The notes under the pieces are model-generated. The model searched no databases, was not told where the DNA came from, and saw nothing but the letters and a program-made list of their open reading frames with translations. The translations under genes were made by a program, and so were the position numbers. Below, piece after piece: positions 25,217 to 64,000 of a DNA stretch of 64,000 nt. The number at the start of each line of letters is the position of its first letter. The stretch's first letter is position 1. The stretch comes from Mesaphorura yosii (Eukaryota; Arthropoda; Collembola; Poduromorpha; Tullbergiidae), in NCBI GenBank assembly GCA_009869945.1, contig WIXG01000225.1, positions 1 through 64,000 on the forward strand. Direction: 5' to 3'.

Positions 25217-26154
25217 TGTTGAGGTGTATAGATGCTTGCAAATCGCTTGATTCTTAATCGACCGTACGCCCGATGTCAAAAATGTCGTTCTACTCTGTAT
25301 TTCGAACAGTGAAGGAAGTTACAATCAAATCTAGCTATTATTCTAAAAGAATCTGCTGATATCTTTAACTCCGATTTTACTAGATAAGTTACTTACCTTG
25401 CCTGTATTGATTAGAGTAGTGAAGAGATACGCTCAGAGGTTAGAAATCAGAACAACTCAATTTTGTCACATTCACAAAAAGCGTCACGCCAAAAGTCGAA
25501 ATGGTGCAAGAAGTAGCACAGCACAGTTTGCTTGTGCCTTGGGTCTTGGCTTGCCGTTCGCTGTTCTTACGTGTTCTTTTCTGTTGTTTTGTGGTTGGTT
25601 GCTGATTCATCATTTACGATTCACAAGAGAAGACTCTTGATGATGAACGGCACGGGTCGTCGCTAATAACTACTTTATGCCTAATGCTAATAATATTGAA
25701 CACCAGGGCATTTGCAGAATCCTTTTCTGCATTTCGTCGTATTGAATGTCCTTTGTGCTGCTGTGCATGAAATACACTAAGATATTCACGCAATAAGTTT
25801 TGCTGAGTTGACATTGAAACAAAAACAAAAATTCGTCTCGAGCTCGGGCTATTGTCTGCTGAACTGCTGCTGCGAACTCGATTACTCGATCACCGCGGCA
25901 GAATTTGATGACCATGCAGTGACTTCCCGAACTTCATGGCGACTTCACTGCAAAACGACTTCCATCGGCTCGTCACCCACAGGCGCTGACAGGCACCGAT
26001 CCGTCTTCGGATGGCATTACATGGCATTGCTGGGTTGAGCAAGTTGGGATCTTTGAGTTATTCATACGTGAAATTCTGCATCCTTATCTCTGAACTTTTC
26101 CAGTGCTCGTAATTTGTTGTACGTGTTCTTGATAAAATCGCCGCATGCTCGACA
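25217..26154. other. Intergenic, no gene seen
   Basis: About 940 bp upstream of DEAD-box copy 2. Several short ORFs overlap on both strands and none has family features. Confidence 0.35.
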
Positions 26155-27583: not shown

Positions 27584-27661
27584 ACGCCCGTCCACCATTT
27601 GACCTTACCGCAATTGCTGTTTTGGTTCCAAGCAGTTGCAGTTGCAATTTGAATTGCCAAA

Positions 27662-29695
27662 ATGGCGTCTCGCTCTCGCTCCATTTTCTTTGTGGCACTC
27701 ACGCTCGCCGTGCTGTGTCAAGTTTTTGTGCTTGCAGTTCCTGAGATTGACCCAAAATTGCTCAAGAAGGCACAAACACCAGCTGGTCGCCTTGTCCGTT
27801 CAACCGCCAACATTTTCATCACGATGAAGGAGGGGACGAGCGAAGTCGTGCAGCAAATCTCGGCGCAGGAGTCGGCCAGCGCCGGCACCGGCGTCATCCG
27901 CACCCGCGGAAGCAAGGCTCGTGCGTTGTTCGAAGGTCTGAAGCAGCACGCCCAGACGACGCAGGAGGCGCTTATGTCCGTGCTCACATCGCAGCAGTCT
28001 CGCCTGGCGAGCGACACCATCAAAAGCTTCTGGATCACCAACCAGATTTACCTGCGCGACGCTGATTTGAGTATTCTCGAAGTGCTGGCGACCAGAGACG
28101 ACATTGAAAGGATCGATGAGGAAATCATCGTTCAGCTGGACGACCCGCTCAATCTCGCACCGATCGACCCAGCAGAAAATAGCGCGAAGGTAACCGACTG
28201 GAATCTGAACATCATCAACGCACCCGATGTGTGGGCACGAGGCATCGACGGTACTGGTGTGGTTGTGGCCAACATCGACACTGGTGTGCGTGGCACTCAC
28301 GAGACCCTGAGAAACACCTACAGAGACGACGGCTACGGCTGGTACGACTCCTACACCAAAACACAAAAGCCAACAGACGACCATGGGCACGGCACGCTGA
28401 CTCTCGCCTTAACAGCCGGCCGACTAGACATCGGAGTTGCGCCCGGTGCGACATGGATCTCCTGCAAGGGACTCAACGCCCAAGGGCAGGGACTCCAAAA
28501 TGTGCTCGTCGAATGTGGCCAGTTCATGCTTTGCCCTACACGGATCGACGGATCTGACCCGAACTGCGACAAGGCTCCCGACGTGATCAACAATAGCTGG
28601 AACTCACAGGACGCAGGCGCCTCCTTTTTCGTGCCAGTCATCGACGCGTGGCAGGCGGCTGGCATCATCCCAGTCTTCTCCATGGGCAACTACGGAACAG
28701 CGTGCTCGACGATTGGGTCACAGGCATCCCACAATGTTATCGCCGTAGGAGCGACCAATTCTCAGGACAAGCTCGCGTACTTCAGCAGCGTCGGCCCGAG
28801 CTTCTTTGAGGGCCAGATCAAGCCAGATATCGTGGCCCCAGGCGAGAATGTTAAATCTGCGTTTAATTCCGGAGACTCGGCGTACGCCGCATCCTCAGGC
28901 ACCAGCCTCGCCGCTCCAGAAGTGGCTGGACTCATCGCTCTCCTGCTGCAAGCCAACCCCGAGCTGAAGTACGACGCTATAAAGGAGATCCTCGAAGTTA
29001 CGGCCGAGAGAGAACTGCTGGGCGGCACGGGCGTTTCTTGTGGTGGAGTCCGCGACTCTGAATTCCCCAACAATCATTTCGGGCATGGACGAGTTCGTTC
29101 GCTGGCAGCCTACGAGTGCGTCGCTGGAGGCAACTCTTGTCTTGGTGCTGACTACGGAGAGCAGTGCGGAACCTGCAAGGAGGGCTTCGCTTGTCTGGAC
29201 GGACGCTGCAGGTGCAGAGACGTCTTTGGTCAGATTTACGATTCGGAGTTGGGCCAGTGCCTGTCACTCGTTGGAGCCAACTGCCCAGGAGGCAATTCGT
29301 CATGCGTAGCGACGGCGTTCTGTGATGCAGGCGGCAGGTGCAGATGCGACGCGAACTCCGGACTCGTGGCGGCGCAAAACCGAGGCAGATGCTACGAGGC
29401 GCTCAAGTACGGCCAGGAATGCAGTGCGAATCAGTGCGACTTCAACAAGGGGTTGAGCTGCGCTGGAGACTCGGGCAGATGCGTGTGCGTGGATTCTGGG
29501 CTCGAGTTCCGTGAGTCAGACGGTGCTTGCGTGGCTGAGGCTGGAGCACAATGCGGTAACCTCCCAGTTCAAGGCTCCTGCCTACCGCCCGTCGATGGTG
29601 CGACCAGCGGAGCTTGCGAGTTCTACCGGGTCGGATGTGGCAGTGGTGCGAGCTGCAGAGACGGCGATGCGGGAGGACGCGTGTGCCAAGCATAA
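27662..29695 (+). CDS. Secreted subtilase, bacillopeptidase F-like, with Cys-rich tail
   Basis: A single uninterrupted frame of 677 residues. Residues 1-25 form a signal peptide (SIFFVALTLAVLCQVFVLA). A propeptide follows to about residue 175. The S8 catalytic domain carries Asp206 (NIDTGV), His243 (GHGT), oxyanion Asn343 (MGNYG) and Ser415 (SGTSLAAP). The flow (NIINAPDVW, DDHGHGT, GVAPGATWISCKG, PDVINNSWN, KPDIVAPG) matches bacillopeptidase F-type subtilases of microbes. After about residue 485 come several Cys-rich modules (CRCRD, CRCD, CVCVD repeats) like EB or EGF-type modules of animal proteins. So it is probably an active secreted endopeptidase. It has a TATA box upstream and AATAAA near 29733. 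It has no intron, unlike most neighbours, which suggests acquisition or retroposition followed by gain of an animal-style tail. Confidence 0.9.
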   Translation: MASRSRSIFFVALTLAVLCQVFVLAVPEIDPKLLKKAQTPAGRLVRSTANIFITMKEGTSEVVQQISAQESASAGTGVIRTRGSKARALFEGLKQHAQTTQEALMSVLTSQQSRLASDTIKSFWITNQIYLRDADLSILEVLATRDDIERIDEEIIVQLDDPLNLAPIDPAENSAKVTDWNLNIINAPDVWARGIDGTGVVVANIDTGVRGTHETLRNTYRDDGYGWYDSYTKTQKPTDDHGHGTLTLALTAGRLDIGVAPGATWISCKGLNAQGQGLQNVLVECGQFMLCPTRIDGSDPNCDKAPDVINNSWNSQDAGASFFVPVIDAWQAAGIIPVFSMGNYGTACSTIGSQASHNVIAVGATNSQDKLAYFSSVGPSFFEGQIKPDIVAPGENVKSAFNSGDSAYAASSGTSLAAPEVAGLIALLLQANPELKYDAIKEILEVTAERELLGGTGVSCGGVRDSEFPNNHFGHGRVRSLAAYECVAGGNSCLGADYGEQCGTCKEGFACLDGRCRCRDVFGQIYDSELGQCLSLVGANCPGGNSSCVATAFCDAGGRCRCDANSGLVAAQNRGRCYEALKYGQECSANQCDFNKGLSCAGDSGRCVCVDSGLEFRESDGACVAEAGAQCGNLPVQGSCLPPVDGATSGACEFYRVGCGSGASCRDGDAGGRVCQA

Positions 29696-31409: not shown

Positions 31410-32297
31410 GTGAGGAATTCCATCGTAACACAATTGGTCTGATTGCATTCATTTCTTTATACAGCGCGTCGTTAAAATAAAAGCCACAATTTCATACTAA
31501 TTCCGTGTAAAAAAAAAGTTCTCGTTCAACTTCCGAGAATTCCGAGCTTATTTTTGGGGTCGCCGTGTGAGCAGAAGCATTCCCTAGTCCAAGAGCCCAA
31601 TTCGATTGTTGACAATTCTTACCAACCCCAACCCGAATCGAATTGGTTTGTCTCCGTAACTGCGTACAAATCACTCTGACTTCTGAGTTTATGATAAAAC
31701 CAGATTTTATCACGCAAAGATAATGGTAATATCAGCATTTTTGCGTGGTAACTTCGAGATTCCACTTGAATTTATAATTCACAGTTGATATTGGCATTCT
31801 ATGAGCCACAGAGCCATCAACCATGCAATGACATGAAACATGCCTTGAACTTGAATGAAAATCGAGCTCACGGCAGTCAGGGCTATCACGCTTGGCTCAC
31901 TAATCCGAATCTCTGACCACGATTCCATGATGTGTTCATATGTTGCGTGATCCCACTCGCTACTTGAATCCCCAAATCAGTAAACTGAATTGTTGGATAA
32001 GTAAATTCTGCTTTGAAACATTCCCAGTCAGTCCCACATTAATCAATCAAATTGAAGTTCATAATCCGATCAGCTTGTAGGATAGAATTTGCATACGCCT
32101 CGTGACGTTTTGCACACGACCCCGTTCAGATTTTGCCAAATGTCAACGATTTGGTCCAATCAATCTTAGTTAATCGTACACGCACGATTCCACTTCAATG
32201 CCCAATCGATATAAATAAGGCTGGCGCCTTAAATTGACCAGCATCATCCGAGTTTGTTTAGAGCTTCGTCAAGCGTCATTCAAGACTCACCATCACC
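31410..32297. other. Intergenic, LPMO promoter region
   Basis: About 890 bp of AT-rich DNA without a supported gene. The last 90 bp is the LPMO core promoter and leader. Confidence 0.4.
32210..32217 (+). promoter_or_regulatory. TATA box of the LPMO gene
   Basis: TATAAATA 88 bp before the ATG at 32298. This leaves room for a transcription start about 30 bp downstream and a short leader. Confidence 0.55.
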
Positions 32298-34288: not shown

Positions 34289-35029
34289 ATTTGATTTACA
34301 GTTTGTTTTTTAAACTTGGAGTTGATAATCTTCCTCTTAAATCGTCACCGGGTTGTTTGTGCGCGATAATCATGAACTGTGAGGGATATGCTGAAATCGA
34401 TTTAACAGTGGCTGATTTGCTTCCCACCCTCCCCCATTCTGATATATATGCTTTATAAAGTCTCGATTGTTTCCTTCGATTTTACACAATTCTGTTAATG
34501 ACGTACTTGACATATGATGTTATCATTGTTGTCGCCGAGTTCTCGTAGACATCGTCACTAGTAAATATGATTTATGGACAGTCCAGTGTTTTTCCAATTT
34601 CTAAGACGCAAGCAGGCAGATAGCATGTATGCAGGAATGAATGACCTTCGACATGCTGCAAATAAAAATTTCCGACACCATCGAAATCCCCAACACAGAA
34701 TAAAAAATCAATACAAGACAAGCACGTCGCATTTATTGTTTTTGTATTTGTAAATTAGATTTTTATCGTTCATAATGAATGAAGCAAATTGTATGCTTCG
34801 TGCGTGGCCAAACCAGTTTTGACGGTAACGCCAGTCCAATTCTTGGAATATCAGGAAATTCAGATCAAGTTTTAAATCCCTTTCTGATGAGCATCAGCAA
34901 CCGGTTTTAATCTTTGCTCTTGTTTATTGCATATTTCGGTGTGAGGCTGCAGATAATCTATTAAATGAATTACTCAGTCACTGTCATTCTATCGTACTCA
35001 TTGTACGGACTTGTCAATTTCGCAGCAAC
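34289..35029. other. Intergenic, no gene seen
   Basis: About 740 bp, AT-rich. Includes the promoter of the takeout-like gene; no clear TATA at a useful distance was picked out. Confidence 0.35.
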
Positions 35030-35921
35030 ATGCGAGCCCGCATCATATCGTGCGTGTTTTTCGGTTTGGTTTTAGTCTGCCTGCCGTCAATCAACGGCCA
35101 GGCAAGACCAAAGGCGAAGCCAACGAAGAAGCCGTACAACCTGGCAATCAAGTTCCCCGAATTGGCGACGGCCTCGCCCGCCGAGTTCGAAGGACTCCGA
35201 GAATGTCCACAGGGATCTGATGAGCTCCTGAATGAGTGCATTCGGTTGATTCTGGAGGAGAACCGCCGCTTCCTCTCCAACGGCGTCCCCCAAATCGGAC
35301 TGCAGCCGGTAGACCCGCTCTACATCAAAGAATTTCCGCTACCGGTGACGAGAAACATTGTCTACAAGTGGAAAAATGTGGAGATTCGCGGATTTTCAAA
35401 GTGGAGCAGAGGCGAGGTTGAGGTGCACACTAAAAACAGGACGATGGACTTCAGATATGCGTATCCGCTCCTCCGAGTCACGGCCGACTACGAGCGAGGA
35501 GGTCAAATATTTGGCATCCCATTGACAGGCTCTGGGAAAGTGCGCCTCGATTTGTGTAAGTCAAATTCAAATCTCGCTCTTAACTTCTCGCACTCACAGT
35601 CGTGCTTTTCTTTTAAAAGACAACTACCAGGCGAACGGGACATTCTTCCTGGACATCGTGAACAACCGGGATGGCCAACCCATTCTGAAGATTCGGGAGA
35701 TGGAGCTCAAAAACGCGGTGGACGACATTCGTAGCTACGTGCCCAACTTGGCCAATGGTGGGCCGTGGGGGCGGATGTTGATAGAATTTCTGGACGAGAA
35801 CGACAAGTGGATCTACGACCAATTCGTCCGGCCTCAGCTCTACGAGCACATGATAAAGTACCTCATTGCGCACTCGACGATTCCGACGATATTTTCCGCT
35901 ACATATTTCATTAACAATTAA
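35030..35921 (+). CDS. Takeout/JHBP-family secreted protein
   Basis: Two exons, 35030-35555 and 35620-35921, joined in phase 1 (GTAAGT donor, TTAAAAG acceptor), encode 275 residues. The joint reads VRLDLYNYQANGTF, typical of the family. A signal peptide (RIISCVFFGLVLVCLPSING) precedes a basic, proline-containing linker. The conserved N-terminal cysteine pair is in LRECPQGSDELLNECI. Later features such as WKNVEIRGFSKW, a FRYAYPLLRVTADYE strand and a final IKYLIAHSTIPTIF helix fit the TULIP-fold barrel that carries small hydrophobic ligands in haemolymph. The ligand is unknown. AATAAA follows near 35960. Confidence 0.88.
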
Positions 35922-53233: not shown

Positions 53234-53900
53234 GTAGATTGTTTCAGCTTATGAACAACTTATCTATTAAATGAATTGATTGCATTGGCTTTATTGCTAA
53301 TGAGCTGATAACGCAGTGAAGAAAATTAATTATCTGGCCAATGAAACATTTAAAATCGTGGAAAAAGTATTTCAGCAAATCACTGAATGGCTCCTAATCA
53401 ATCAAAGTGGTTTTTGGTCGTGCAATCATTTCCTTGTGGCTACGGCCTCGCAAAAGCTGAAAATAAATCGACTTCGGTCTTGCTTTTCTCGGGCCATTGT
53501 TTCCGAAGACGTTGAAGATTAAAGTCATTGACGTGTCCGATCATAACTCTCGAAACTGAAAAATGAATTTCGCCAAGTGTGTTGCTGTCGCTGTGATCGT
53601 TTTGGCTGCGTTGGTCTCCGGGATCGCAGCTGACGACGATTATGTGAATAATCAATTTCGTAGTATTAATTTCGCATTGATTTTTACTGAAGCACTTCTT
53701 GATTTGAGCAGGGTCGCGGTGTTGGTGGCCCCGTAGCTGCGAAGCGTTCAATCAATTACTAGGGCCGTGCTTGTCAAGATTGGTTCAAGAGAAGACGTGG
53801 ACTGGACTTTTAATTTAAATTGATTTAAATTTTTTTTGTTTAATATTCTGTTGGCAATTGGTATTGGCATATTTGTGTAGTCGAAAATAATATCATAACC
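53234..53900 (+). repeat. Tandem duplication, unit 2
   Basis: Repeats the last codons of RPA1 as non-functional sequence (reading LFQLMNNLSIK, then stop), followed by the second small peptide gene. The orphan copy of the RPA1 tail shows the direction of the duplication: the polymerase gene is the source, and its last codons came along as passenger. Confidence 0.8.
53563..53762 (+). CDS. Small secreted peptide precursor, copy 2
   Basis: Exon 1 (53563-53643) and exon 2 (53712-53762) join in phase 0 across a 68-bp intron (GTGAAT donor, GAGCAG acceptor) to give 43 residues. The signal peptide is MNFAKCVAVAVIVLAALVSG, cleaved near GIAA. The remainder is DDDYGRGVGGPVAAKRSINY, with a dibasic KR before the C-terminal SINY. 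This looks like a short secreted or neuropeptide-like precursor; copy 1 has KR before PLNY, so the KR and final NY are conserved. No family recognised. Not in any long ORF, but splice sites and the paralogue support it. Confidence 0.6.
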
Positions 53901-55155
53901 AGTTATAAATATTGCTTGATTGTAATTGTAATGGCTCGATCGGAGGTGTCGGTCGAATCTCCTGCAGTGGAATTTCTCCCTTCAGCATCCTTCCACCGTC
54001 CCTCGTGAGTCTCAGATAGTAGTCGGCCGAACACCGCGTCCCGTCCTCGTCCAGGTTCACGAATCCCGCTCCAACCGGAGCCATCGACTCATCCTCGGCT
54101 GTTTTGGCGATCTGGTTTGCCTCGTTGTACTCGTCAAACATGGAAATGTAGATTCCCTGCACGCCAAGGCTCGCGTAGTTGTAGAACTGGCGCCACATGA
54201 GGTCTCCGTGAAAGCGCTGGTGAGCGGAAAGGTTTCCGGGCAGTACACACGGCTGGTAGTCGAGATTGTACTCGTCTATGAGTTCCTGGTCTGCTTTGTT
54301 GACCAGATCGTAGTAAATGTTCACGTCGTTGATGCTTCCAACTCGGCCGACCATCCAGGGCGAAATCATATCGAGTGCCAAGTACGCCTGGAGGAAGTTC
54401 GGTCTGGAGTCGGCCACTCCGGTGCGCCACATTGTCGGGACTCCGCCGATGACGTACACACCCTGCCCTTTGAACCAGTTGATGACGTCGAGTGCCTGCT
54501 CTGCCGTGAAGGGACGCCCATTGTCGTCGCTGAACCCGAAGCCCCAGATGCAGACGACTGGCTTGCCGTTCTGATATGCGTACGCCTGGGATCCGGTGTG
54601 CCTCGACATTTTATTGAGCCAATCTTCCCGCAAGTCAGCCTGCATCGATCTCCACCCGCTGACGTCGTACATGATATAGAATTTCACACCGCTCTTCTCG
54701 GCAGCAGCACGAACGAGCTCTGCCATCAAATCACGGGTCGGCCCTTCGGGTGAGGTTGGATTAAACCGTTGCAGAGCGGCTGTGTCGACTCCGTACTCGG
54801 CCATCCATTGAAAATGGACATCGAGGACCTGCGCGTCCACCGACGAGAACAGCGTGGCCGGTTGTCCGTTTCCGAGATTGGGGAAGTCTGTCTGGTAGGT
54901 TCTGTTGTACTCACGCATGTCGGGGTACGAAATGATGGCCGAGTTGGTGAGGGACGGAGGCTGTGCGTTGTTCTTTGACCAGTGCCACCACACGTTGATT
55001 GGCGAGCCATCGCCTGGGGCTGCAAACCAGCCTTGGTAACCGACTGTGATCTTCCCGACTACATCTCCGGGAGGGGAGCCGCAGGAGACGAAGGAAATTG
55101 CGGACGCGAAGGCGAGAGCGATGACGGGCAACGGCAACATTCTGATTTTACCCAT
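53893..55155 (-). CDS. GH99-like secreted glycoside hydrolase, probably acquired
   Basis: One coding exon of 420 residues from the ATG at 55155. A TTTCCAG acceptor at about 55197 upstream shows a 5'UTR intron. The signal peptide is RMLPLPVIALAFASAISFVS. The body matches a family of bacterial and fungal proteins labelled GH99/GH71-like or xylosidase/arabinosidase: VGYQGWFAAPGDGS near the start, then DVHFQWMAEYGVDTAALQRF, then YIMYDVSGW, VVCIWGFGFSDDNGRP, VIGGVPTMWRTG, MISPWMVGR and finally ISMFDEYNEANQI. Conserved acidic residues in the last block are plausible catalytic residues. It probably cleaves a plant or microbial polysaccharide. The lack of coding introns suggests horizontal transfer; the animal-like 5' intron suggests domestication. 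Confidence 0.82.
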   Translation of the reverse strand: MGKIRMLPLPVIALAFASAISFVSCGSPPGDVVGKITVGYQGWFAAPGDGSPINVWWHWSKNNAQPPSLTNSAIISYPDMREYNRTYQTDFPNLGNGQPATLFSSVDAQVLDVHFQWMAEYGVDTAALQRFNPTSPEGPTRDLMAELVRAAAEKSGVKFYIMYDVSGWRSMQADLREDWLNKMSRHTGSQAYAYQNGKPVVCIWGFGFSDDNGRPFTAEQALDVINWFKGQGVYVIGGVPTMWRTGVADSRPNFLQAYLALDMISPWMVGRVGSINDVNIYYDLVNKADQELIDEYNLDYQPCVLPGNLSAHQRFHGDLMWRQFYNYASLGVQGIYISMFDEYNEANQIAKTAEDESMAPVGAGFVNLDEDGTRCSADYYLRLTRDGGRMLKGEIPLQEIRPTPPIEPLQLQSSNIYNWL

Positions 55156-55749
55156 GCTTGAACTTTTCTTGTACTCCGACTGCGGCTGCCGAACTGGAAA
55201 GTAAAACTGTAACCAGAACGAACGCAGTAAGATCTCTAATACTACCTGCTGTGATCTTGGCTTGTAATTAGTTGTTGACACGCATCGGGCGTTCGGTCGC
55301 TGATAACCCACAACTTCGGTGGTAGCATGATTGATTCATATTTGATGATATCCACGCGTCACCGAATTAGCATTAGCAAGGCTGCCTGAAGTGATCGATC
55401 AAAATCAGGAGTGCAGTAAATGTAGTCACTACTACAGGCAGGAATCACTTAAAAACTTGTAATTGACAATGACAGACAATTTACTCATGCATTCAAATAC
55501 GTGAAAACACTTAACATTAAAACATTAAAACGTACACAAATTGATACTCAACAAGGACGACGTAAAATAAATACGAATCGAATCTGAACTTAAACTAAAT
55601 GATAAATCAACCAAATCGATTTCTAACAAATCCAACAAATGGAAATATGTCGGTTAAATAATTACTAATTAGTTTAAAACAAGAACAAAATGCCAATAAT
55701 ATTGAATAAAATCGCATGCATGCTTCTCAAAACTCAGTAAAGTTAACAA
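55156..55749. other. Intergenic, no coding gene seen
   Basis: About 590 bp. Holds the 5'UTR exon and intron of the GH99-like gene near 55190-55310 and the AT-rich 3' flank of the BTB-HMG gene (55440-55740). Confidence 0.4.
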
Positions 55750-58363: not shown

Positions 58364-59189
58364 ATGTCCAGCATGATTTCGTCAGGTGCTGGTGGTGCTA
58401 CGCCCAGTATTCATTACTTGAAGTCGAATCAGTTGAAAATTATGTGGGAGCACGGAAATTCATTGCTTCTGGTTAGCTAAATAGTACCAATAGATTTGGG
58501 TTGGCTTGCTGTGCTGAATGATTTGCTGCATGAATGTATTTAATTTTTCTAGGAAATGCACGAAAATTACATCAAGCAAAAGATGGTGGACGTCACGATC
58601 GTTTGCGAAGGTCAGCTCATCAAGGCTCATAAAGTGGTTTTGTCGACGGCGCCGTATTTCAGGGTAATTAATGCAAATACTATAATTTTGTATTCCTTTC
58701 CCCAAGCAATCGATTTCTAAAGTGCTCTTGACTCTGGCTTCCCCATTTTAGAAGCTGTTCATGGAACTTGACCCTTTCACACAAAATCCCGTCATTTGCA
58801 TCGCGCAAATTAAGTACAAATGTATGCTGGTCTTAGTCGATTTCTTGTACAAAGGAGATATTGAGGTACTCGTTTTATTGTCGTCCTCTCAATAGACATT
58901 TCTTGTCTTCACGTGTGCGGTGTACGTCATTCAATTTCAGATCAGCACTGATGACATTCAAGAGCTTCTCATTGCAGCTGAGTTCCTGCAGTTGCCGGAA
59001 GTTACAGAAGCACTCAAGTCGGCTCCTCCAACTCAAGTCTATGGCATAGAGATTCCTGCTACAACTGTTGCTGAAGGAAAAGAGCCAGAACCAAGCGCAG
59101 TTGCTGACGTCTCTCCAGTCGAAGTCGATAAACCCTCCCCAAAATTAGGAAGAGGGAGGCGAGTCAAGCGGGCACCGCCTGAGCGCTGA
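58364..59189 (+). CDS. Short BTB/POZ-domain protein
   Basis: Four exons, 58364-58471, 58553-58663, 58752-58865 and 58941-59189, all phase 0, encode 193 residues. The BTB domain reads MVDVTIVCEGQLIKAHKVVL, STAPYFRKLFMEL, then LVDFLYKGDIEISTDDIQEL and LLIAAEFLQLPEVTEAL, the pattern of the ttk-type insect BTB proteins. The C-terminus is basic (GRGRRVKRAPP) and there is no zinc finger or other DNA-binding domain, so it may act as a dimerisation partner. Its BTB introns fall at the same places as in the neighbouring BTB-HMG gene. AATAAA lies at 59274-59279. Confidence 0.88.
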
Positions 59190-59558: not shown

Positions 59559-62500
59559 TTAAGACCTGCCAGCCGCCTCGAAGAAAGCCTTCATATTTCC
59601 CCTGCCAAACATCTTTTCGTAGTAATCAAGCTGTCTTTCGGCCATGTCAACAGGGTCGATCATCAGATCGTCGATGTCCGGCACGTATTTTTTGAGCCGT
59701 GGGCTGTTGGACACCATGTTCAAACCATGGCCTGCGATTGCATTCTTCGTCAGCGTGTGCTGCGTGATCATGTCAGAAGAGAACAAGTCTTTGATGTAAA
59801 GCTCGGCAAGTGGAGCCATTTCGATGCCCTGCGACGTGAGTGCAGCTTCCCTCCACTTGTTGTAAGAAACGACTTCGAATTCAAAGCCTCGACCTCGAAT
59901 CAACTCTTGGAGATCGTGCACACGCCGTATTTTTGGGTTGTTGATGTTGTACACGCCGGGCTCAACGGAGCGATCGAGGAACATTTGCACCGAGACCTTG
60001 GCCGCGATGTCGACGGCGACTGCTGTGAGCTGAGAGTTCTCGTCCACTTCCGGGAATTTGCCAATCTTCTGGCACGTGAGCATAAACATGACGAGGTTGT
60101 TGCGCTTCAGGGGAATGAGACCGTTGCGACTGTCGCCGATGAGGTAGTGATGACGGAGGGCCGTGACCGGAATTCCTCGGAGCAGCGCCTGCTTCAGCAA
60201 CTTCTCACATACAAACTTGGAAATGTGGTAGCCCGTCTTGAGCGATTCGCCGTAATCGTCATCGGCTGGGAAGACGTCTGGTAGACTGCCGTCAACCTCG
60301 AGTTTATTCAGCGCGTAGATGCTCGATGCAAACTGGAGTGGCTTCGCTCTGCCCGTCGTCGCGAATCTCAGAATGTTGTGGAGGCCAATCACGTTGTTGG
60401 TGCGGATGTCGTCGGCGCTGAATGGACCGTAGGGCAGGGCGGGGTTCGCGAGAGCCGCATAGTGGATGACAGAGTCAATTTCGCGGGACAGTTTCTCATA
60501 CGCTTCAGGGTCCAGGCCGAAGGCTGGCGTGGCGACATTTCCAGCGATGCAGCACACACGAGAGAAATCAATGGACTCGAGCAGGCTCAAGTCGTCGAGG
60601 GTCGTTTCAAGCCTGTCGAGGGCATCTTCTGCCGATTTTGCACGAACCAAGCAGTAGACTGTTGCTTCAGGACTCGCGGAGAGCAGCTCCTGGAGAATGT
60701 AAGGAGCAAGATGGCCAGTGGCTCCGGTCAGAAGGATGGACTTGTATTCGGTAGCTGTTGCCGAGTTCGGGCTCGAAGCCGAAGCCTTCTCGCCACTTGC
60801 GCTCGATTCAGGCGAGAAAGGCACAATGTCTTCTGGGAGCTCGATATCGCTTTTAATCTGGATCATGAGCTCCTCCGGCGTCAGTTTCCTCGCGGCCACT
60901 CCCTTATTCACCGTGTCATTGATCAATTTCGCCAGTTTGTTGACGGTTCGATTCTCCTGCAAGTCATGAATCGACAGCGCGTGCGTGTCGTAACCCTCGA
61001 GGAGATGCTGGATCTTTGACCGGAGTTCCATTGCCATGAGCGAGTCGATGCCCATCTCGCGTATGTCCTGATCCGGATCAATCGGCTCCGTCTCTGGCAG
61101 CCGCAGCGTATCCCGAATTACGTACTCAATGAATTCCCTGATCTTTCCCTCTCGTTCGCTCGGATCCGAGTCTTTTATGGCTTGGACTCTCGCTTCGAGT
61201 TCGGCCGAGTTGGCAATCTCTTCCTTGTGCGTTCGCATCAGGTCAAAGTACGAGCCCGCGTTGTACGTAGTCGTCAGCACTTTCACGTCCGCCACCTCAA
61301 AAACGACCGTGTTGGTCTTCTGGCTGAGCATTGCGCGCTGGAGCGAAGCGACGCCCTGCGCAGGTGTGAAGAGCCGCATGCCGAAAGTTGTCTCGAGGTT
61401 CTTGAACCCTGCAGCCGCGCCCACGTCGCTCCACGCGCCCCAGTTGACGCTGCAGCACGGCAGGCCTTGCTCCGTCCGGAATCGGGCGAATGAGTCCAAG
61501 TATTTGTTGGCCGAGCAGTGATTTGGCTGGCCAATTCCGCCTAGCGCGGAGCTCAGCGAAGAGAAAAGAACGAAATGCTCCAGGTGACAATCCAGCGTCA
61601 GAAAATGCAGGTGATTTGTGCCGTGCACCTTCGGCTTGTAACACGCCATGAATGCGTCGAGACTCTGATTGATGATGATACCGTCGTGCAGCACTCCAGC
61701 AGCATGCATGACACCTTTGAGTGGAGGGAACCCCGTGGCCGGGTTTTTGATTACGGCCAGGACACGCTTGCATGCTTCAAAGTCGGAAACGTCGGCAGAC
61801 TGGACCAACACGCTCGCCCCTGCTGTGCGAAGTCCAGAAAGGATGTGTTCGGCTCGTGGTGACGGGGCGGAGCGACCGACGAGGACGATGTATTTCGCTC
61901 CTGCGCCTACCATCCACTTGGCGACTTCCAGGCCGAGTCCTCCAAGTCCTCCGGTAATCATGTACGAGCTGTACGCGTTAAACATGACTTCCTTATGCTC
62001 GATTCGCCCGCTTTGGATCCCAGTGACCGGCATTCTCACGACGACCTTGCCAATGTGCTTGGCCTCCTGCAGGAAGCGGAACGCTTCGTGGACTCTGCTG
62101 AGTGGGAAAAGCGTGTACGGCAGCGGGCGATACGCGCCCATCGCCAGGCCATCCAGCAGCATGTTGCTCACGCGGAGAAACTCTTCGCCGTCCCCGAACG
62201 CGCCCATCATCTCTGAGCTGCCTTTCTCTTCAGTTTCATTCAACTTCTGGATGAAATATGTCACGTCGGGGCGAAGGTCTGCCACTTCTGCTTCAGTCCA
62301 CACATTGAGCTTGGACATTTCCAGGAACCGACCGCCTTCCGCGAGTACGTCGAGCGTCGTCTCCTTGAAACCGGGACCCGTGAGTGCGTTCAGAACGATC
62401 GTCACTCCCGCGCCGTTCGTGTCGGCTTTGATCTGGGCACCGTAGTCCGTGCTTCGGGAGTTGTATAAGTGGCGAATGCCGAGCGATGCGAGATACTTGC

Positions 62501-64000
62501 GCTTTCTTCTGTTGCCAGCCGTCGCGTAAATCTCTGCTCCGATGGCTCGCGCGACTTGAATTGCGGCGAGACCCACGCCGCCCGACGCGACGTGGATCAG
62601 AACGCGGTCGGAGGCTCGGAGTTTGCCGACGTGCACGAGAAAGTAGAGGGCGGTCAAGTACACACAGGGAAGTGTGGATCCGTCCTCGAAAGACATTCCC
62701 TCCGGCATGACGTGCACGCAATTTTCGGAAACGACGACGTGACTCGCGAGCGCTCCGCCCGGAATGAACCCAAAGACTCGCTCTCCGATCTTGAATTTTG
62801 ACTTCGATTTGCCGTCTTCCGCCACGTTTCCAATGTTCGTCACAACCCCAGAAAAGTCTACGCCGAGCTCCGTCGCGAATTTTGGCATTGCCTTCACGTC
62901 CTCCACGGAAATGAGCTGGCTGTCTCCACTCGTCGACATTGCGATCAGCACGTCCTTGAAATTCAGGGCGGAGGCAGCAACTTTGACTTCCACTTCGCCT
63001 GGCGCGGGAGTTTTGCGCACAGCAGCGACAATTTGAATATCCGGGATTGTGCCGTTCGCTGGCTTTTCCAGTTTGTACCGTTCCGCGTTGGGGTAGACGA
63101 GTGGAGGTTTGTAAGGCTCAGCATTGATCAGCCGACGGACGTACTTCTTTCGGGCACGGAAAGCGACCTGGTTCTCCGTCTCGTTGAGCCAAAGCTGGTG
63201 GAAGACGTCTTGGCACGCAGCGCTCGCTGTGTCTTCCGGATCCACGTCAATAACGACGGCTGACCGGTCAGCGAATTCATTCAGGAACGTCATCAGAATG
63301 CCCGACAGCGTGGCCGAAACAGGGTTCGTGGGTTCCTGATCCCCGACTCCGATGTACTGAGCTCCGTTTGTGACGACAGCCATCTTCGGTTTGGACTCGA
63401 GCGCATGCAAAGCCTGAATGACGTGCAGGAGGCCTCCGCAGATTTGGCGCAGGTGAGTTTCGTAGTCGACGCCAGAGTCCTCTGAGGGGAAAGTGGCCGG
63501 AATTCCCCACAAGTAAAGAATTCCTTCGACATGCCCTCGCCCTCCTCCTGCTGCGCCGCCGGCGCCGCTGCTGCTGATATCTTCCTTTATTGCTTCAAAG
63601 AGGTCGACGAATTGTGAAGACACGACTGGATTGACGGTGTACATATATTTTGCAGTGTCCGCAGATCTGCTGATCGATTCTGCGTCAGCCGCGGCACGAA
63701 TTCGAACCACATCTTTGCCCACAGAACGTAGCAGCTCCGAAATGCGTGCACTGAACTCGTCCTCGTCTTCGTCTTGCTCATCGTTCCCACCAAAGACAAG
63801 CCACGTTCCGGTGCCTGTGCTTATACCTGTGCCAGCGCCTGATTCTTGTGCCTGTGCCCCCTGCACCTCGTGCGAGCCGTTCACAGCGAGCGTGTGCTCT
63901 TCGGGCCCCGCGAAGGCGACAAAGTTCCTGTAGTCGAGCCCCTCAAAGTCGCCGTACTCCTTCGGGAGCACGAATCCGTTCGCTTCCAGCAGCTGGAACC
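59559..64000 (-). CDS. Type I polyketide synthase ending in thioester reductase (partial)
   Basis: A single uninterrupted frame of 1480 codons that runs off the right edge; the N-terminal part is outside. Domains in order from the right: a degenerate (structural) reductase-like region, an enoyl reductase (FGFIPGGALASHVVVS, then HVASGGVGLAAIQVAR), a ketoreductase (TGGLGGLGLEVAKWM, LFSSLSS), an acyl carrier with GIDSLMAMEL, and a C-terminal thioester reductase (LLTGATGHLAPYILQELL and GYHISK, the Tyr-x3-Lys pair). A KS, AT and DH would be expected upstream. Such a synthase would make a reduced acyl chain and release it as an aldehyde or alcohol using NADPH. The ketoreductase lacks the usual catalytic tyrosine: the YAAAN position reads HCSAN. 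The gene is intronless over 4.4 kb and GC-richer than its neighbours, so acquisition from a microbe is plausible. Confidence 0.9.
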   Translation of the reverse strand, partial: FQLLEANGFVLPKEYGDFEGLDYRNFVAFAGPEEHTLAVNGSHEVQGAQAQESGAGTGISTGTGTWLVFGGNDEQDEDEDEFSARISELLRSVGKDVVRIRAAADAESISRSADTAKYMYTVNPVVSSQFVDLFEAIKEDISSSGAGGAAGGGRGHVEGILYLWGIPATFPSEDSGVDYETHLRQICGGLLHVIQALHALESKPKMAVVTNGAQYIGVGDQEPTNPVSATLSGILMTFLNEFADRSAVVIDVDPEDTASAACQDVFHQLWLNETENQVAFRARKKYVRRLINAEPYKPPLVYPNAERYKLEKPANGTIPDIQIVAAVRKTPAPGEVEVKVAASALNFKDVLIAMSTSGDSQLISVEDVKAMPKFATELGVDFSGVVTNIGNVAEDGKSKSKFKIGERVFGFIPGGALASHVVVSENCVHVMPEGMSFEDGSTLPCVYLTALYFLVHVGKLRASDRVLIHVASGGVGLAAIQVARAIGAEIYATAGNRRKRKYLASLGIRHLYNSRSTDYGAQIKADTNGAGVTIVLNALTGPGFKETTLDVLAEGGRFLEMSKLNVWTEAEVADLRPDVTYFIQKLNETEEKGSSEMMGAFGDGEEFLRVSNMLLDGLAMGAYRPLPYTLFPLSRVHEAFRFLQEAKHIGKVVVRMPVTGIQSGRIEHKEVMFNAYSSYMITGGLGGLGLEVAKWMVGAGAKYIVLVGRSAPSPRAEHILSGLRTAGASVLVQSADVSDFEACKRVLAVIKNPATGFPPLKGVMHAAGVLHDGIIINQSLDAFMACYKPKVHGTNHLHFLTLDCHLEHFVLFSSLSSALGGIGQPNHCSANKYLDSFARFRTEQGLPCCSVNWGAWSDVGAAAGFKNLETTFGMRLFTPAQGVASLQRAMLSQKTNTVVFEVADVKVLTTTYNAGSYFDLMRTHKEEIANSAELEARVQAIKDSDPSEREGKIREFIEYVIRDTLRLPETEPIDPDQDIREMGIDSLMAMELRSKIQHLLEGYDTHALSIHDLQENRTVNKLAKLINDTVNKGVAARKLTPEELMIQIKSDIELPEDIVPFSPESSASGEKASASSPNSATATEYKSILLTGATGHLAPYILQELLSASPEATVYCLVRAKSAEDALDRLETTLDDLSLLESIDFSRVCCIAGNVATPAFGLDPEAYEKLSREIDSVIHYAALANPALPYGPFSADDIRTNNVIGLHNILRFATTGRAKPLQFASSIYALNKLEVDGSLPDVFPADDDYGESLKTGYHISKFVCEKLLKQALLRGIPVTALRHHYLIGDSRNGLIPLKRNNLVMFMLTCQKIGKFPEVDENSQLTAVAVDIAAKVSVQMFLDRSVEPGVYNINNPKIRRVHDLQELIRGRGFEFEVVSYNKWREAALTSQGIEMAPLAELYIKDLFSSDMITQHTLTKNAIAGHGLNMVSNSPRLKKYVPDIDDLMIDPVDMAERQLDYYEKMFGRGNMKAFFEAAGRS

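What the first reader, a model, noticed from the sequence alone, without database searches (positions are those of the whole stretch)
59559..64000. Multidomain polyketide synthase with a reductive release domain in an arthropod-like genome
The sequence shows at least 4.4 kb of intronless frame encoding ER, KR, ACP (GIDSLMAMEL) and a C-terminal thioester reductase, next to intron-rich BTB genes. Reductive release gives an aldehyde or alcohol, which would be useful for defensive or cuticular compounds. Few animal PKSs with this ending are known to me. The gene may be an acquired biosynthetic system; it continues outside the window, and partner enzymes may follow.
Basis: partly seen in the sequence, partly recalled or inferred. 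Interest (0 to 1): 0.8.

Follow-up and report, generated by a model that had tools for sequence, protein, structure and literature searches.

The report
Pseudo-glycogenin-fused polyketide synthase in an arthropod
An arthropod genome carries a bacterial-style enzyme gene that should build reduced, possibly methyl-branched lipid aldehydes or alcohols, and its front end looks like a disabled copy of the animal's own glycogen-starting enzyme, a part that the Pfam domain library does not detect.

Summary
Window 59559-64000 (minus strand) is the 3' part of a stop-free 3189-codon frame reaching 69128 on a 127.6-kb contig. Order: KS-AT-DH-MT-ER-KR-ACP-thioester reductase, with eukaryotic genes on both sides. 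KS, MT and R each match a bacterial protein best, and eight own copies form one KS clade beside cyanobacterial KSs.

The 5' end lies outside the window. Six of 12 KS loci fetched have intron-split exons for a glycogenin (GT8) domain before the KS: profile E=1.6e-32, unseen by Pfam. Hand-made splice models run into the KS without a stop (5 of 5), and in C731 the glycogenin end lies in the PKS exon itself. One intron has the place and phase of one in the host's true glycogenin. The DxD site is lost in 6 of 6.

Best reading: an acquired bacterial-type reducing PKS fused behind host glycogenin exons, then multiplied under constraint; the dead head may dimerise or tether, the tail releases an aldehyde or alcohol. 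Product, expression and host species are unknown; no paper I saw describes the fusion.

The parts
59559..60761 (-). Thioester reductase (R) domain, C-terminus and stop; TGATGHL NAD(P)-binding motif, GYHISK active-site Tyr/Lys (motif roles recalled)
   Evidence: NAD_binding_4 152 bits; MxaA R domain E=5.2e-42, best of 12 chains listed
60903..61157 (-). Acyl carrier protein, GIDSLMAMEL
   Evidence: PP-binding 40 bits
61425..61967 (-). Ketoreductase; the position of the active-site Tyr is His (GQPNH)
   Evidence: KR 190 bits; motif tally
62037..63002 (-). Enoyl reductase
   Evidence: ADH_N, ADH_zinc_N, ADH_zinc_N_2
63969..64000 (-). Last bases of the C-methyltransferase, which continues beyond the window. 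In contig C225 coordinates (window = C225:1-64000) the rest of the gene is: MT 63969-64436, DH 65196-66113, AT 66255-67292, KS 67752-68873, and the pseudo-glycogenin head in modelled exons 69198-69264, 69430-69595, 69682-69895, 69963-70270, 70350-70356, spliced in phase 0 to the PKS exon that starts at 69095 and runs down to 59559
   Evidence: Pfam domains; CurJ MT E=3.5e-43; hand-made splice model; profile of five heads vs PDB glycogenin-1 E=1.6e-32; Pfam finds nothing in 5 of 5 heads
58553..59186 (+). Neighbouring BTB-like exons beside the PKS 3' end (not part of the PKS gene)
   Evidence: read from translation

Best explanation
The gene encodes one protein of about 3430 residues: a glycogenin-like (GT8) head without the catalytic site, fused to a highly reducing type I PKS (KS-AT-DH-MT-ER-KR-ACP) with a terminal thioester reductase. 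The PKS is of bacterial type and was probably acquired horizontally; it came to lie behind duplicated host glycogenin exons, which would have supplied promoter, start codon, splice sites and a folded domain. The fused gene then multiplied. Likely mechanism: AT loads malonyl units, KS elongates iteratively, MT may add alpha-methyls from SAM, KR/DH/ER reduce, and R releases the chain with NADPH as an aldehyde or alcohol. Because glycogenin is a dimer (recalled), the head most likely helps dimerise or tether the KS dimer. Shown: domain order, intact PKS frames, continuity of head and KS frame at DNA level, loss of the GT catalytic motifs, one shared intron, common KS clade. Inferred: transfer and its direction, transcription as one mRNA, role of the head, product class.
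For: Domain order in C225 and in C851 and C731. Contig of 127,596 b with eukaryotic genes on both sides. Best PDB hits: KS CurL, MT CurJ, R MxaA (their bacterial origin is recalled). KS tree of 45 rows: 8 own PKSs one clade 100/100, inside a 95/95 clade with 8 cyanobacterial and 2 Nocardia rows and 2 more own rows. GT8 exons in 6 of 12 fetched KS loci; 5 of 5 splice models open into the KS; the sixth, C851, is an open frame from head to KS. C731: last GT8 motif in the same stop-free exon as the KS. Genome-wide search with the C225 head (E up to 10) hit 6 loci: C225 itself, C632, C851, C135 and C246, each 0.4-3.6 kb upstream of a PKS KS on the same strand (C246 only at E 0.10 and 0.25), and the true glycogenin. 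Head intron 4 has the phase of the true glycogenin intron in 5 of 5 models and the same residue distance to the next motif in C225 and C632. Intron 1 occurs only in C246, C731 and C135, one KS subclade, so head and PKS seem to descend together. Synonymous sites near saturation (pS 0.72-0.86 over the 12 pairs run) with frames intact; pN 0.32 (head) and 0.15 (KS) for C225-C632.
Against: No RNA or reads. Splice sites were chosen by hand so that the frame stays open, so openness and phase agreement are partly by construction; the tiny 7-base first exon of C225 is the weakest part, and the C246 and C135 models lack a start. In C225 the PKS exon has its own possible start (MPVPIPIS). Only one of the head's introns is shared with true glycogenin, whose stretch over introns 1-3 is uninterrupted; in C731 and C135 the shared intron is one residue nearer the motif, in C246 not comparable. 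C799 and C627, in the same clade, show no head within about 4 kb, and C627 has no R hit on its contig. The genome search missed C731. The tree has no fungal or amoebal PKS rows, so a eukaryotic go-between is not excluded. KR has His for Tyr in 7 of 7 own loci matched, though 4 of 27 bacterial motifs share it. The C225 DH motif has Glu where Gly is usual.
Confidence: 0.75

Rival explanations
1. The glycogenin-like gene and the PKS are two neighbouring genes duplicated together as a cassette, not one protein.
For: In C225 the last GT8 exon would meet a stop if its intron were retained, and the PKS exon has internal Met codons.
Against: In C731 the glycogenin end motif (SILAFTQGPPWTL) lies in the same stop-free frame as the KS with no intron between; C851 is also open from head to KS; the modelled junction intron is phase 0 in 4 of 4 copies that have it and only 70-216 bases long.
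Confidence: 0.12
2. An ordinary arthropod AFPK/FAS that lost introns and gained an R domain.
For: Arthropod AFPKs are widespread and a few have R domains (PMC10764717, passages).
Against: KS scores 396 bits to CurL and 238 to an FAS chain; MT is closest to CurJ; two other own KSs (C155, C908), which I take for FAS type without a test, sit apart in the tree.
Confidence: 0.04
3. Assembly chimera or contamination from a bacterium.
For: GC of the PKS exon is 0.57 against 0.43-0.50 in the three 2-kb bins beside it.
Against: Eukaryotic genes on both sides in one contig, introns in frame with the PKS, eight divergent paralogs on eight contigs, GC3 0.69 just above the 0.46-0.67 of seven host stretches that I picked.
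Confidence: 0.03
4. The head does nothing as a protein; it only provided a promoter and start, and persists as a neutral leader.
For: DxD lost in 6 of 6 heads and the GDQG and HxxGxxK motifs in the 5 aligned; two clade members show no head.
Against: Head frame open in 5 of 5 models at saturated synonymous divergence, pN 0.32 versus pS 0.79 for C225-C632 (splice sites hand-picked); 15 columns invariant in the five heads.
Confidence: 0.2

Closest known systems
Dictyostelium discoideum PKSs with C-terminal thioester reductase
   Same: PKS core with MT and a C-terminal off-loading enzyme: 21 of the 40 carry one, two of them chalcone synthases, the rest most likely thioester reductases (PMC12828403, passages)
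   Different: No glycogenin head in those passages; the Pks16 chain scores 287 bits for KS here against 396 for CurL, and 22 bits for MT
Horizontally acquired PKSs of the springtail Folsomia candida (e.g. OXA62418.1)
   Same: Many type I PKS clusters of likely transfer origin in a soil arthropod (PMC5490193; PMC10764717; passages)
   Different: Domain order and N-terminus not described in the passages seen; sequence not available here
Cyanobacterial PKS modules (CurJ/CurL type; L055, L058-L068)
   Same: Stretches matching KS to MT at 33-39% identity, KS up to 48.6% identical, several in the same KS clade
   Different: No hit of the head profile in the held bacterial loci; three other bacterial frames scanned carry AMP-binding partners, two of them sulfotransferases
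MxaA-type thioester reductase
   Same: R domain E=5.2e-42
   Different: Sits here at the end of an animal gene with a GT8 head
Animal glycogenin (GT8)
   Same: Homology E=1.6e-32; one intron in common with the host gene
   Different: DxD, GDQG and HxxGxxK motifs lost; fused to a PKS

Membership tests
Highly reducing type I PKS | KS-AT-DH-(MT)-ER-KR-ACP on one chain | tested here: met
   Pfam order in C225, C851 and C731
Highly reducing type I PKS | KS Cys/His/His, AT GHSxG, ACP DSL | tested here: met
   present in 3 of 3 aligned copies; motif roles recalled
Highly reducing type I PKS | KR catalytic Tyr | tested here: not met
   His in 7 of 7 own loci matched; also His in 4 of 27 bacterial motifs, so activity is open
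Highly reducing type I PKS | iterative chain building | not testable with these tools
   needs an enzyme assay
Thioester-reductase-terminated synthases | C-terminal R domain with TGxxGxxG-type motif and Tyr-xxx-Lys | tested here: met
   NAD_binding_4 over cut-off in 3 of 3; TGATG and GYxxSK in 3 of 3; MxaA best hit
Animal FAS / AFPK | KS in the animal FAS clade, terminal thioesterase | tested here: not met
   KS nearer bacterial PKS by score; R and no thioesterase in Pfam. No AFPK rows were in the tree
Dictyostelium-type TR PKS | common descent with amoebal PKSs | tested here: inconclusive
   only the Pks16 chain was available, by score; no amoebal rows in the tree
Glycogenin (GT8), active enzyme | DxD metal/UDP site | tested here: not met
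   lost in 6 of 6 heads; kept in own true glycogenin C264
Glycogenin (GT8), homologous fold | significant profile match over most of the domain | tested here: met
   E=1.6e-32, 19 of 21 listed chains are glycogenins

The most novel reading that the evidence does not exclude
An acquired bacterial-type megasynthase was domesticated by capturing the 5' exons of a host metabolic gene: a duplicated glycogenin, with one of its introns, became a catalytically dead N-terminal scaffold of a PKS, giving a pseudo-glycogenin-PKS-reductase family that has since radiated in an arthropod and makes released lipid aldehydes or alcohols.
Probability: 0.55. Interest if true: 0.8.

Novelty: new variant of a known kind. 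Interest (0 to 1): 0.62.

Why it matters
Polyketide synthesis in arthropods has been described as likely dominated by FAS-like AFPKs, with few or no PKSs (PMC10764717, passages). Here an arthropod has a radiated family of bacterial-type reducing PKSs, and the gene suggests a concrete route by which a transferred giant gene could gain eukaryotic expression: capture of host exons. It also gives a pseudo-glycosyltransferase a possible job as a megasynthase head. Because Pfam misses the head, similar fusions may lie unannotated in other soil arthropods, perhaps in Folsomia. The reductase tail makes a testable product class, cuticular or defensive aldehydes and alcohols.

Tried and rejected
Host identification: an 18S pattern and COX1 gave no match in the assembly; Rfam 18S searches got no answer from the machine. 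An early idea that the host is a fungus was dropped after the Wnt, cuticle protein and JHBP hits. The host is left as an arthropod; springtail is only a guess.

Bacterial donor with the same full architecture: not found, not excluded. The genome-contig scan gave 16 loci. Of 292 genomes of the phylum of G003 (cyanobacteria), 10 had a stretch at E<=1e-200; these match KS to MT at 33-39% identity. That call printed only such strong stretches, so an R domain beside them would not have shown. In one search R-like stretches of G003 lay on other contigs than its KS stretches. Pfam on three bacterial frames showed other partners.

GT8 as a plain Pfam domain: PF01501 over the whole genome hit 13 stretches, none on a contig with a KS hit, and Pfam on the five spliced heads found nothing; a profile of the heads shows it, single exons only weakly. 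GT8 in front of every PKS: rejected; no head found at C641 (two KS), C444, C908, C799, C627. For C799 and C627 about 4 kb was searched, for the others about 1.5 kb.

Literature: glycogenin plus polyketide synthase in full text, 7 papers. I saw passages of three, unrelated to a fusion; the other four only as listing. The other nine searches were seen as listings, with passages of some hits. The library lacks most subscription papers.

Full report
The frame. In the window the minus strand is open from 63998 to 59559. The window is contig C225:1-64000 of a 93.0-Mb, 1127-contig assembly, and the contig is 127,596 bases. On the contig the frame has 3189 codons, 59562-69128. Pfam gives KS, AT, DH, a C-methyltransferase with a sub-threshold HTH_51, ER, KR, ACP and NAD_binding_4. 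Two other copies fetched have the same order. C851 has a degraded MT motif (IEVGGQAG) in the alignment of three, so not all copies may methylate.

Host and setting. Wnt and Chitin_bind_4 families are present, and a JHBP, a trypsin and a P450 lie in the window, so the host is an arthropod. BTB-like exons abut the 3' end. In the 20 kb beyond the 5' end four scanned ORFs are LSM14, a lipid-droplet hydrolase, GFA and NUBP2. I noticed no biosynthetic cluster, but the stretch was not fully annotated.

Origin of the PKS. Single-domain searches of PDB sequences put proteins that I know as bacterial first: KS CurL 396 bits, MAS 353, psoA 289, Dictyostelium Pks16 287, an FAS chain 238 (the top row, 7zma, sums two KS domains of 262 and 289 bits); MT CurJ 151, DisA 115, then the citrinin PKS 106, LovB 82, Pks16 22; R MxaA 147, 8v1x 117, a carboxylic acid reductase 70. 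The nearest bacterial KSs among held loci are cyanobacterial, 48.6% and 47.9% identical; the other seven clade members range from 71% to 48%. For a 45-row KS tree I left out hits under 300 residues, repeats of a locus beyond two, and six duplicate loci. Eight own PKSs form one clade (100/100), in a 95/95 clade with eight cyanobacterial and two Nocardia rows and, weakly (86/67), the two KSs of C641. Own rows C444, C155 and C908 lie elsewhere. Fungal, amoebal and AFPK rows could not be added, so a eukaryotic go-between is possible. Of the eight clade members seven have an R hit on the same contig and strand; C627 has none.

The head. The 142-codon piece at C225:69870-70295 and the first 244 residues of the C851 frame each match glycogenin weakly (E=3.4e-5 and 1.2e-4). 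Reading the upstream DNA of the 12 fetched KS loci, the best 12 of 36 KS rows, showed the same exons at C225, C851, C632, C246, C135 and C731. Splice models for five loci, with sites chosen by hand, use GT-AG introns of 60-216 bases whose phases follow one scheme (2,0,1,2,0, with losses; C225 has an extra phase-1 intron after a modelled 7-base first exon). All five translate without a stop into the KS; the C246 and C135 models lack a start. C135 has its first head exon at 32106-32267, about 3.5 kb before the KS and behind an intron of about 2.4 kb, with the expected phase-2 donor (splice read by eye). In C731 the last glycogenin motif and the KS share one exon.

Homology and loss of catalysis. 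A profile of the five heads finds glycogenin-1 at E=1.6e-32; 19 of 21 listed chains are glycogenins. Pfam finds nothing in 5 of 5, and PF01501 over the genome misses the PKS loci. The genome keeps a true glycogenin at C264 with FLDADTLV, GGDQGLLN and HFIGAVKPW. The heads read FLHPCSIV, FLHPHSLV, FLHPRSR, FLPPNSL, HISPNSLV and YVDSNSI at the DxD site, so they are unlikely to work as glycogenin does; the roles of these motifs are recalled.

Tests of the fusion. Searching the genome with the C225 head alone, at E up to 10, hit six loci: C225 itself, C632, C851, C135 and C246, each 0.4-3.6 kb upstream of a PKS KS on the same strand, and the true glycogenin. The C246 matches are weak (E 0.10 and 0.25) and C731 was missed, so the search is not exhaustive. 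The profile over 15,550 translated pieces of 70 held loci hit, at E up to 0.1, own PKS loci and glycogenin only, none of the bacterial loci. True glycogenin has a phase-2 intron ten residues before the end of FAQNVKIAHF; C225 (FNSNTKIIRF) and C632 (LSPDTKIVRF) have one at the same place and phase, C731 and C135 one residue nearer, C246 in phase but not comparable. The other head introns are not in true glycogenin, where the stretch from WVT to AYK is uninterrupted; they may be later gains, or losses in glycogenin. Intron 1 occurs in C246, C731 and C135, which form one KS subclade with C627, and is absent from C225, C632 and C851 in the other. Head and PKS thus seem to descend together. C799 and C627 sit in the clade without a detected head, best read as losses.

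Constraint. Synonymous differences are near saturation (pS 0.72-0.86 for six KS pairs, 0.76-0.80 for six head pairs), while pN for C225-C632 is 0.15 (KS) and 0.32 (head). Five frames of 3108-3211 codons remain open. Where dS was infinite the printed ratio uses dS=3 and is only indicative. GC3 of three PKS copies is 0.69-0.71 against 0.46-0.67 for seven host stretches that I picked.

Mechanism. From established PKS knowledge: malonyl loading (HAFH motif, recalled), iterative KS extension, optional alpha-methylation, reduction, and NADPH release by R as aldehyde or alcohol. Points of doubt: the KR Tyr is His in 7 of 7 own loci matched and in 4 of 27 bacterial motifs, and the C225 DH motif has Glu for Gly. 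The head as a dimer or tether domain is inference.

Known work. TR-ended PKSs are common in Dictyostelium (PMC12828403, passages). Arthropods were reported to have few or no PKSs, mostly AFPKs, a few with R domains, and Folsomia transferred PKSs (PMC10764717; PMC5490193; passages). The oribatid mite Archegozetes has two KSs grouped with Streptomyces (PMC7542773, passages). Springtail cuticular lipids can be unusual (PMC10825826, passages), but the host here is not shown to be a springtail. I found no description of a glycogenin-PKS fusion in the searches named in Tried and rejected.

Noticed in passing
C641:17655-18404 and 25245-25973 (L009, L010): Two further KSs in long open frames with KR-ACP or an ACP-like motif directly upstream of the KS (read from translation), as in modular assembly-line PKSs, in the same arthropod genome.
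   Followed up: partly
KR domains of C225, C851, C731, C1104, C632, C135, C641: The KR active-site Tyr is His in all seven own loci matched, and in 4 of 27 bacterial motifs including cyanobacterial L058.
   Followed up: partly
C851 (L025), MT region: Methyltransferase SAM motif degraded and part of the MT region missing relative to C225, so paralogs may make differently branched products.
   Followed up: no
window 27653-29692 (+): Single-frame subtilase of 680 codons with GC 0.58 between 2-kb bins of GC 0.46 and 0.44.
   Followed up: no
window 53896-55335 (-): 480-codon frame of GC 0.55 with no Pfam match at E<=0.001.
   Followed up: no
window 34829-35731 (+): Frame with a haemolymph juvenile hormone binding protein (JHBP) match of 78 bits, supporting an arthropod host.
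   Followed up: no
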